Shown here: piece after piece, positions 28,140-38,448 of the stretch
How the letters are laid out: each line of letters opens with the position of its first letter
Numbering within the stretch: position 1 is the stretch's first letter
Assembly (NCBI GenBank): GCA_016872055.1
Contig: VHBH01000004.1
Location: 1-45,529 of the forward strand
DNA length: 45,529 bases
Direction: 5' to 3'
Source of the DNA: Nitrososphaerota archaeon
Lineage (GTDB): Archaea > Thermoproteota > Nitrososphaeria > Nitrososphaerales > Nitrosopumilaceae
The notes under the pieces: generated by a model
Databases searched by the model: none
What the model saw: the letters and a program-made list of their open reading frames with translations, nothing else
What the model was told of the DNA's origin: nothing
Made by a program: the position numbers and the translations under genes

Positions 28140-28778
28140 ATGTCACTTACAAAAAAAATAGATCAGCTAATCGAGCAGAAGAGCTTACTCAAGCACCCGT
28201 TTTATCAAATGTGGTCAGACGGCAAATTATCTAAAGAAATGCTTGCAGGTTATTCTAAAGAATACTTCCAAATGGTAAAGGCAGTTCCGTCTTTTGTTGG
28301 CATGATTGTGCCATACACGCCAGAATCAATGGTATCAGAAATCAAAGAAAACCAATATGAAGAATCAGAACATATTGCTCCTTGGGCTCATTTTGCAGTA
28401 TCTCTGGGCGTGCAAAACATAGAGTCCTATATAGGACTTGAAAAGACAACTACGGCTGTATCTGAGCTATCAAGTTTAATAACTTCACTAGAATCAGGCG
28501 CAGCTGCTATGTATGCGTTTGAAAAGGAAATTCCAAAAATAAGCCACACAAAGCTAGAGGGCTTGGCAAAATTCTACAATATCACTTCAGATTCAGCAAC
28601 AGAATATTTCAGATTGCATGAGGAAGCAGATATTAGACATGCAGCAACATGGGAGAAAATACTGGATACTATTCCAGAAGAAAAACATGTCGAAATTTTG
28701 ACAATTGCAGAAAAGTCACTTGATGCACAAAACCATCTTCTGGACAGCTGCTACGAAAATTACTGCACATCTCTATAA
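28140..28778 (+). CDS. CADD/TenA-like di-metal oxygenase, probable p-aminobenzoate synthase
   Basis: This is a 212-residue all-helical protein of the heme-oxygenase-like (TenA/PqqC/CADD) fold. It opens with LLKHPFYQMWSDGKLS, then YEESEHIAPW, E128 and H160-x3-D164-x2-H167, the spacing of metal ligands in CADD-type enzymes. In Chlamydia and Nitrosomonas the CADD group makes p-aminobenzoate for folate by sacrificing its own Tyr and a Lys amine. Here Y22 and K138 are candidates for those residues, from spacing only. A TenA-like thiaminase or another heme-oxygenase-fold role is the alternative. It stands alone between two tRNA genes. Confidence 0.75.
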   Translation: MSLTKKIDQLIEQKSLLKHPFYQMWSDGKLSKEMLAGYSKEYFQMVKAVPSFVGMIVPYTPESMVSEIKENQYEESEHIAPWAHFAVSLGVQNIESYIGLEKTTTAVSELSSLITSLESGAAAMYAFEKEIPKISHTKLEGLAKFYNITSDSATEYFRLHEEADIRHAATWEKILDTIPEEKHVEILTIAEKSLDAQNHLLDSCYENYCTSL

Positions 28779-28811: not shown

Positions 28812-28885
28812 GGGCCCATAACTCAGCTTGGTAGAGTAACCGGCTCATAACCGGTGAGCCAAGGGATCGAAGCCCTTTGGGCCCA
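28812..28885 (+). tRNA. tRNA with anticodon CAT (elongator Met, or Ile2)
   Basis: This 74-nt cloverleaf has acceptor strands GGGCCCA and TGGGCCC with discriminator A. The anticodon stem is ACCGG/CCGGT with loop CTCATAA, anticodon CAT. The stem lacks the three G-C pairs of initiator tRNA, so this is elongator Met or the agmatidine-modified Ile2 type, and I cannot decide between them. No CCA is encoded. The universal-stress-protein remnant ends one base after it. Confidence 0.93.
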
Positions 28886-28886
28886 C

Positions 28887-29325
28887 TTATTTTATCAATT
28901 CCATTGGATACGCTGCATTAAGAGCTACGTTGGTAGAGATTCTGCCCAACATCTCTCCTTTACCGTTTCCTTTCCACTTGTTCCCGTTACGATGTAGTCA
29001 ATTTTGTTCATACTGGCAAATGAAATCTATGATTCCCAATTTTGTTAGATTCTAGGAAACTACATGTTAGATGAATCTGAAACTTGGTGGTTTGGACTTC
29101 GAATAATTTGAAGATTCTTCGAAGTACTACTTTTCGACTGACTGAAATATCTTTTACCTGCTTTGCGTGATACTGTTCAATCCTGCGTTAGTCTTCGTTT
29201 GTATGGATATGACATTGATTGGGACACCATTTTTTTTTGCTAAATCCAATGCATGGCAAAATGCTCGAATCGCATGCTTTGAGTATTAAATGGCACCATG
29301 ATGTGGCGACTAGGTTATTTGCCAT
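28887..29325 (-). pseudogene. Universal stress protein (UspA family) pseudogene
   Basis: The minus strand carries recognisable UspA-family pieces in the right order but in changing frames. From the 5' end they are IMVPF (29302), then SKHAIRAFCHALDLA and NGVPINVISIQTK (29282 to about 29190), IIDF and NKIDYIVTGTSG (about 29026-28975), and finally GEMLGRISTNVALNA and a stop at 28887. The pieces need at least three frame changes, and a stop interrupts at 29154-29156. A likely original ATG lies at 29325, giving a total length of about 440 bp, that of an intact UspA domain gene. The order, the length and the family motif (GTSG-x-L-G-R-I-S-x-N-V) support decay of a once complete gene. Confidence 0.75.
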
Positions 29326-29331
29326 ACTACA

Positions 29332-29578
29332 ATGCTCCAAGTCATTGCACACAATCTGGGTGTAATCCATCTATCATGGTGCCAATACGGCACTAAAATT
29401 AACGAGTTTGTATACATCGAAAAATCACACGCGGGGGGACAATCAATAAAAGAAGTCCCAATAGAATAGAACTTGGCCGCAATGAAGAATCAGAGTTATA
29501 TCTGAAAAATGATGTGAAGGCATTTGACTGAGCTGCCAATTCATTTGAGTATAAATACGGCTGTTTTGCAAAAAGGCT
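29332..29578 (+). pseudogene. Broken coding remnant upstream of tbp
   Basis: One frame reads INEFVYIEKSHAGGQSIKE and VPIE and stops at 29467-29469. The next frame continues with LGRNEESELYLKNDVKAFD, a TGA at 29529-29531, then AANSFEYKYG. At the break the DNA has TAGAA repeated in tandem (29462-29471); removing one copy joins the two frames without a stop. After that only the TGA interrupts. I do not recognise the family. The piece runs through the tbp TATA box and is in frame with tbp, so it could also be an N-terminally extended relic. Confidence is limited by its short length. Confidence 0.4.
29550..29557 (+). promoter_or_regulatory. TATA box of the tbp gene
   Basis: TATAAATA is a near-perfect archaeal TATA consensus, 26-33 bp before the tbp ATG. 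The transcript would have almost no leader. TBP may bind its own promoter here. Confidence 0.7.
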
Positions 29579-29582
29579 GAAG

Positions 29583-30143
29583 ATGCCGCAAACAAAACCA
29601 ATAGTATCAATCGAAAACGTAGTCGCCTCTGCCACAATAGAGCAAAGGCTGGATCTGACAGAAATCACGAAAAAATTCCCAGACACGGAATGGAACCCAG
29701 AACAGTTCCCTGGATTAGTATTTAGAATCAAAAGCCCAAAGACTGCTACTCTGATTTTCTCATCAGGCAAGATGGTCTGCACCGGAGGAAAATCAGAAGA
29801 GATGGCAGTCAAAGCTGTAAACTCTGTTGTAGCCCAGCTAAAAAAGGGTGGAATCAAAATAAAAAATAATGCAGTAGTAACCGTACAAAATATAGTAGCA
29901 TCTGGAAATCTTGGCGGAAAAATTCACCTAGAGCAAGCAGCTAGGATATTGCCGCGAAGTATGTACGAGCCAGAGCAATTTCCTGGATTAATCCATAGGA
30001 TGCTTGACCCAAAAACAGTGGTACTCTTATTTGCATCAGGAAAATTGGTATGTACCGGAGCAAAAAAGGAATCCGATGTTTACCGCTCGGTAAATAATCT
30101 ACACAACACCCTAGAAGACAAAAAGCTAATGATATACGACTAG
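29583..30143 (+). CDS. tbp: TATA-box-binding protein
   Basis: This 186-residue protein is made of two direct repeats of about 90 residues. The DNA-kinking Phe pairs are all present: F42 (EQFPGLVFR) and F59 (LIFSSGKMV), F133 (EQFPGLIHR) and F150 (LLFASGKLV). It recruits TFB and RNA polymerase to promoters. The short tail is KLMIYD, without the acidic C-terminus of many euryarchaeal TBPs. It shares a CTAG stop with the convergent pyrE. Confidence 0.96.
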   Translation: MPQTKPIVSIENVVASATIEQRLDLTEITKKFPDTEWNPEQFPGLVFRIKSPKTATLIFSSGKMVCTGGKSEEMAVKAVNSVVAQLKKGGIKIKNNAVVTVQNIVASGNLGGKIHLEQAARILPRSMYEPEQFPGLIHRMLDPKTVVLLFASGKLVCTGAKKESDVYRSVNNLHNTLEDKKLMIYD

Positions 30144-38236: not shown

Positions 38237-38448
38237 AAGTTTGCATCGCCTTTTTTGTCTCTATTAACTTTTGGGCTTATTGATAAATAGTTGATTTGTA
38301 CCAAAAACTAGTCAAGTACAAAATACATATCATGCGAAAAGATCTTCTTTTCTTCAGCTGGTTTGTCTAACACAATTGTTCTGGACTAGAAGTACTGTAT
38401 GGAAAACTCTGGGTGAGTTGATAGATCTTTTGGTGAAATTAATGACCT

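What the first reader, a model, noticed from the sequence alone, without database searches (positions are those of the whole stretch)
28887..29325. Decayed universal stress protein gene directly behind tRNA-Met/Ile2
Pieces matching UspA motifs appear in order over about 440 bp on the minus strand but in several frames with stops, including the C-terminal piece that ends one base after the tRNA. It explains most of an otherwise empty 700-bp gap.
Basis: seen in the sequence. Interest (0 to 1): 0.5.

Follow-up and report, generated by a model that had tools for sequence, protein, structure and literature searches.

The report
Decayed stress-protein gene beside a tRNA
In an archaeon that is probably an ammonia oxidiser, a universal stress protein gene that close relatives keep intact has rotted into a pseudogene next to a transfer-RNA gene; this is ordinary gene loss, although the tRNA turns out to be a docking site for mobile DNA units in the relatives.

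Summary
Window 28887-29370 (minus strand) is a universal stress protein (Usp, PF00582) pseudogene, running from a recognisable ATG at 29370 to a TAA one base past the tRNA-CAU gene. Eight of 16 other genus genomes carry the gene at the same place, divergent from the TATA-binding-protein gene (one of the eight has a stop in its N-terminal extension). Against the nearest relative held, the window copy has 7 frameshifting deletions (8 nt), and its substitutions are flat over codon positions (19/18/18; 3/1/16 in that relative). Aligned parts of six flanking genes have no gaps. So this is decay, not sequencing error. Other usp copies in this 1.24-Mb genome are broken or deleted too, but a regional control gives no evidence of preferential loss. 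The tRNA 3' end (CCTTTGGGCCCA) is an attachment site, empty here. In six relatives 2.6-59 kb lies between tRNA and usp, partly as core-bounded units of 0.55-4 kb without a PF00589 recombinase; 12 of 13 aligned unit ends look alike over about 90 bp, and two units are in swapped order in two species. The pseudogene is ordinary; the units in the relatives are the part worth following.

The parts
28887..29370 (-). usp (universal stress protein) pseudogene, from former ATG (29370-29368) to TAA (28889-28887); 484 nt against 492 nt in the open copy of G001
   Evidence: profile pieces vs shuffles; alignment to orthologues, 7 frameshifting deletions; read-through match E 6.4e-20
28812..28886 (+). tRNA gene with CAU anticodon (called Met by ARAGORN), 3' end facing the 3' end of the pseudogene
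28874..28885 (+). CCTTTGGGCCCA: 3' end of the tRNA, attachment-site core repeated downstream in relatives; unoccupied here
29371..29582 (.). upstream region shared by the former usp and the TBP gene; the part from about 29436 is matched also in G005, G008 and G015, where no usp was found
29583..30143 (+). TATA-binding protein gene, divergent neighbour of usp in 8 relatives
   Evidence: Pfam PF00352 E 6.7e-57
28140..28778 (+). intact TENA/THI-4-like gene before the tRNA (flank, one of the control genes)
38344..38353 (.). scar of a second usp gene: about 1041 bp present in G001 (1042 in G012) is missing here; 10-bp direct repeat CTTCTTTTCT at both borders in G001 (one mismatch at the right border in G012)

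Best explanation
Window 28887-29370 is a unitary pseudogene of a Usp gene that relatives keep divergently beside a TBP gene. Shown: open orthologues at the same place, several frameshifting deletions here, and equal substitution at the three codon positions in the window lineage. Inferred: the gene became dispensable early after the split from the nearest relative held (G001), one change inactivated it, and neutral drift with a bias to small deletions has eroded it since. It makes no full-length protein and most likely does nothing now. It touches the tRNA because the tRNA 3' end is an attachment site at which mobile DNA enters in other species, and that site is empty in this genome.
For: Relatives-only profile: 5 in-order pieces, sum 141.7 bits, against a best shuffle piece of 11.1 in 1000 shuffles. 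Read-through match E 6.4e-20. Eight of 16 other genus genomes have a usp frame directly upstream of TBP, and G016 has one without TBP beside it. Seven deletions (six of 1 nt, one of 2 nt), all frameshifting, against G001, while G003 has no indel against G001. Window-branch substitutions 19/18/18 by codon position, G001 branch 3/1/16, Fisher p 4.6e-4. Five flanking genes summed on the window branch: 27/9/110. Usp 55 of 484 sites changed on the window branch, about the flanking third-position rate of 110 of 1276. Six flanking genes: no gap columns in the aligned parts against G001 (one of them aligned over only 364 of 501 bases because the fetched stretch ended).
Against: The general Pfam model does not find this copy at E<=0.001, so the case rests on genus relatives. 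The branch counts assume G003 as outgroup. G000 is an unnamed draft genome in 32 contigs and no reads were available.
Confidence: 0.96

Rival explanations
1. Sequencing or assembly errors break an intact usp gene.
For: Draft genome of 32 contigs; six of the seven breaks are single-base deletions.
Against: No gap columns in the aligned parts of six flanking genes against G001; substitutions at first and second codon positions are as frequent as at third, which indel errors cannot produce; another usp remnant in the genome lacks about 145 bp inside the gene.
Confidence: 0.02
2. The usp gene was cargo of an element that once integrated in the tRNA and was left behind, so what decays is mobile-element residue rather than a chromosomal gene.
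For: The usp stop codon lies 0-1 base from the attachment core in four genomes (G000, G001, G003, G012); no usp was found in the fetched locus of five relatives; 16 integrated thaumarchaeal elements are reported to carry UspA (PMC6563490, passages seen).
Against: In G001 and G003 usp lies beyond the last core, on the chromosome side; usp is beside TBP in 8 genomes; in G002, G004, G006, G009, G010, G011 and G016 the sequence next to the usp stop is not the core; no second core with up to 1 mismatch lies between usp and TBP in the window.
Confidence: 0.12
3. The pieces are a living gene read by programmed frameshifts, or as short proteins.
For: The N-terminal 60-codon frame 29188-29370 keeps its ATG.
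Against: Seven shifts in 484 nt and no codon-position constraint.
Confidence: 0.01
4. Chance resemblance in a non-coding gap.
For: Weak scores with the general Pfam model.
Against: No shuffle of 1000 reached any of the five pieces; 395 of 484 aligned sites identical to the open orthologue.
Confidence: 0.005

Closest known systems
Universal stress protein family (Pfam PF00582), the TBP-linked orthologue of this genus
   Same: Homologous over the whole length, same place and orientation; the open G001 copy scores E 2.4e-25 to PF00582
   Different: The window copy is broken in several frames and has lost codon-position constraint
Genome streamlining in freshwater nitrifiers (Podowski et al. 2022, PMC9239080; 12 of 19 matching passages seen)
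   Same: Small genome and fewer paralogues in an archaeon of the same family (family inferred)
   Different: That paper's archaea are Great Lakes Nitrosarchaeum; the passages shown do not mention usp loss
Integrated mobile elements of Thaumarchaeota in tRNA 3' ends (Krupovic et al. 2019, PMC6563490; passages seen)
   Same: Short att repeats at tRNA 3' ends (down to 8 bp, median 17); Ca. Nitrosotenuis sp. AQ6f is said to hold five elements in four tRNA genes; tandem use of one site noted
   Different: Their smallest cryptic element (2.6 kb) has an integrase; in the core-bounded units seen here in G002, G003, G004, G009, G010 and G016 the PF00589 search placed no recombinase; other recombinase families were not searched

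Membership tests
Usp (PF00582) gene, as a pseudogene | sequence homology over the domain in order | tested here: met
   relatives-only profile and orthologue; the general Pfam model alone does not pick it up
Usp (PF00582) gene, as a pseudogene | orthology with an open gene at the same locus | tested here: met
   8 of 16 other genus genomes, divergent from TBP, one of them with a stop in the N-terminal extension
pseudogene | disrupted frame not explained by sequencing error | tested here: met
   7 frameshifts here, no gap columns in the aligned parts of 6 flanking genes; no reads available
pseudogene | relaxed selection | tested here: met
   19/18/18 vs 3/1/16, p 4.6e-4
pseudogene | no protein made | not testable with these tools
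   no transcript or peptide data
tRNA attachment site of integrated elements | direct repeat of the tRNA 3' end bounding inserted DNA in relatives | tested here: met
   G001, G003, G004, G016 on one contig with exact cores; G002 and G009 with one-mismatch variants; G008 and G010 on two contigs
tRNA attachment site of integrated elements | cognate integrase | tested here: inconclusive
   one tyrosine recombinase inside the 58-kb G001 interval, just over the Pfam cut-off (27.8 vs 27.1 bits); none by PF00589 in the intervals of G002, G003, G004, G009, G010, G016
integron cassette array | hairpin-forming attC site | tested here: not met
   4 of the 13 aligned sites folded as DNA with the core at the 5' end, z -1.12 to 0.59; 2 of these also on the other strand, z -2.33 and -0.32

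The most novel reading that the evidence does not exclude
In this genus the tRNA-CAU end, whose empty form is the window's tRNA-usp junction, anchors an array of exchangeable DNA units of about 0.55-4 kb without a recombinase of their own (some with ParE- or HicA-like genes). They share a ~90-bp right end plus the tRNA-derived core, are moved by a recombinase acting in trans, and are reshuffled between species like cassettes but without integron attC sites.
Probability: 0.35. Interest if true: 0.55.

Novelty: new member of a known kind. Interest (0 to 1): 0.2.

Why it matters
As a pseudogene it is routine: one clear case of a stress gene dispensable in a small-genome archaeon, useful for correct annotation and as a lineage marker. 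It shows a TBP gene that has lost the divergent partner kept by 8 relatives. The junction matters more: it gives the empty reference site needed to delimit mobile units in relatives.

Tried and rejected
Considered an attachment core elsewhere in this genome: a second exact copy at C4:103127 seems, by eye in the sequence, to lie inside a coding frame; I did not translate or search it, and took it as chance.

Considered preferential loss of usp genes: in matched G001 regions 2 of 11 usp frames are intact here against 32 of 84 other frames (p 0.32). Two usp frames were masked by antisense frames in that script; adding them by hand gives 2 of 13 (p 0.13). Not significant. Some of the 'other' frames are antisense shadows and were not removed.

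Considered integron attC: rejected on folding of 4 of 13 sites. The consensus fold has four pairs, three with double changes, which I read as a short inverted repeat rather than a hairpin site.

Searched viral contigs for two arm-plus-core patterns: 0 matches each. Paper searches showed no description of this locus in the listings or in the passages seen of four papers (PMC6563490, PMC9289680, PMC9239080, PMC7554672); no paper was read whole, and the paper on integrons in Archaea (PMC9668308) was seen only as a listing.

The NCBIfam scan of unit genes never ran (one search failed). Frames of the G001 971-bp unit, G002, G008 and the G010 tRNA-side contig given were not scanned again.

Full report
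What is there. Between the tRNA-CAU gene (28812-28886) and a TATA-binding-protein gene (29583-30143) the minus strand holds Usp-like pieces in all three frames. I built a profile from ten Usp frames of relatives (one each from eight genomes, plus one G016 gene that entered twice through two overlapping loci) and scored the gap: five pieces in order, 38.6, 32.8, 28.0, 27.4 and 14.9 bits, sum 141.7; the best piece in 1000 shuffles had 11.1. A search that reads through stops with the G001 protein hits 29029-29370 at E 6.4e-20. The general Pfam model is nearly blind to it (best E 0.084; not listed at E<=0.001). A second profile used may have taken in window pieces during its iteration, so I do not rest the case on it.

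Where it belongs. A DNA search of the genus (17 genomes, own included) and a TBP search give the same locus elsewhere. Contig lengths and titles tie G012 to VHBK01, G015 to OMIR01, and G006 and G011 to Ca. Nitrosotenuis bins (inference from equal lengths), so the genus is most likely Nitrosotenuis. State of the usp place in the 17 genomes: usp frame directly upstream of TBP in 8 (G001, G002, G003, G004, G006, G009, G010, G011; G011 has a stop in the N-terminal extension); usp without TBP beside it in G016; only the 3' end at a contig edge in G012; decayed in G000; no usp found in the fetched locus of G005, G007, G008, G014 and G015; locus not recovered in G013.

That it is dead. Against G001 the window copy has seven deletions (six of 1 nt, one of 2 nt), all changing frame; G003 against G001 has none. 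With G003 as outgroup, substitutions by codon position are 19, 18, 18 on the window branch and 3, 1, 16 on the G001 branch (p 4.6e-4). Five flanking genes sum to 27, 9, 110 on the window branch, and six have no gap columns in their aligned parts against G001. The usp rate of 55 in 484 sites is about the flanking third-position rate of 110 in 1276, so constraint was absent for most of the branch (inference). Sequencing error would not give this pattern.

Context in the genome. Pfam finds 5 Usp matches here against 8-17 in the ten other genus genomes that are at least 90% complete and at most 5% contaminated. Of the five, two are full length and one is the end of a 770-aa frame; two are fragments, at C2:171.5 kb (about 145 bp missing inside the gene) and C1:37.5 kb (several gaps and no full frame); a third remnant, truncated, lies near C2:172.4 kb. 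A further usp, 8.9 kb beyond the start of TBP in G001 and G012, is cleanly missing in the window at 38344-38353, with a 10-bp direct repeat at both borders in G001. A control does not show that usp genes were lost preferentially: 2 of 11 usp frames against 32 of 84 other frames intact in the matched regions (p 0.32). A paper on sponge-associated Thaumarchaeota reports UspA enrichment in deep-sea symbionts (PMC9289680, passages), which fits a family whose size varies with habitat.

The tRNA side. In six relatives with both on one contig the tRNA and usp are apart: about 2.6 kb in G003, 6 kb in G002, 9 kb in G009, 11 kb in G004, 11.5 kb in G016 and 59 kb in G001 (coordinates). The usp-side match in G001 and G003 begins inside the tRNA 3' end, so CCTTTGGGCCCA is repeated there. 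Exact copies of this 12-mer: 34 places in 17 genomes, 1 for the reversed control; not all are at this locus. In G000 and G012 the tRNA runs straight into usp: the empty form. In G001 a tyrosine recombinase, just over the Pfam cut-off, lies inside the 58-kb interval.

The units. Cores divide the relatives' intervals into ten units of 552 to 4072 bp, besides the 58-kb one (cores with one fixed variant position at two places). The first 625-bp unit of G004 equals the second unit of G009 (624 bp) end to end at 90.7%, and the stretch after it in G004 equals the first unit of G009 over 2.0 kb at 91.9%: the order is swapped. Twelve of 13 aligned unit ends look alike over about 90 bp (by eye; G008 does not). 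Parts of this end recur elsewhere in the genus with other sequence after it, which suggests units with other targets; this was not followed. Of seven small frames scanned (one in a G004 unit, three in G010 units, three in the G016 interval between its last core and usp), two match HicA and one ParE above the Pfam cut-off; two more resemble ParE and one HicB below it; one has no match. Units of this kind are not in the window: the unit end has no match in G000.

Verdict. The finding is correct and its explanation ordinary. The junction's role as an empty docking site is a useful by-product.

Noticed in passing
L041 (G004) 1553-2190; L043 (G009); L052 (G010); L044 (G016); L040 (G003): Core-bounded DNA units between tRNA-CAU and usp in relatives; order of two units swapped between G004 and G009 (90.7% and 91.9% identity); 12 of 13 unit ends alike over about 90 bp; no PF00589 recombinase in these intervals.
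   Followed up: partly
L211, L212, L216, L217, L220, L221, L223: The first ~45 bases of the unit right end occur elsewhere in genus genomes followed by other sequences, as if units with other target sites existed.
   Followed up: no
L219 (G009 C1:1505696-1505726): A further unit-end-like site with a variant core, between the tRNA and usp of G009, missed by the stricter core pattern.
   Followed up: no
window 38344-38353: Clean ~1041-bp deletion of another usp gene between 10-bp direct repeats, relative to G001 and G012.
   Followed up: yes
G000 C2:171.5 kb and 172.4 kb, C1:37.5 kb (L194, L196): Three more usp remnants in the same genome.
   Followed up: partly
G014: No Usp match at E<=0.001 in an 81% complete 1.2-Mb genome of the genus.
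   Followed up: no
G005, G008 and G016, TBP-side region: The TBP gene seems missing at this place in these three genomes; their listed TBP matches lie elsewhere and are 82% identical or less.
   Followed up: no
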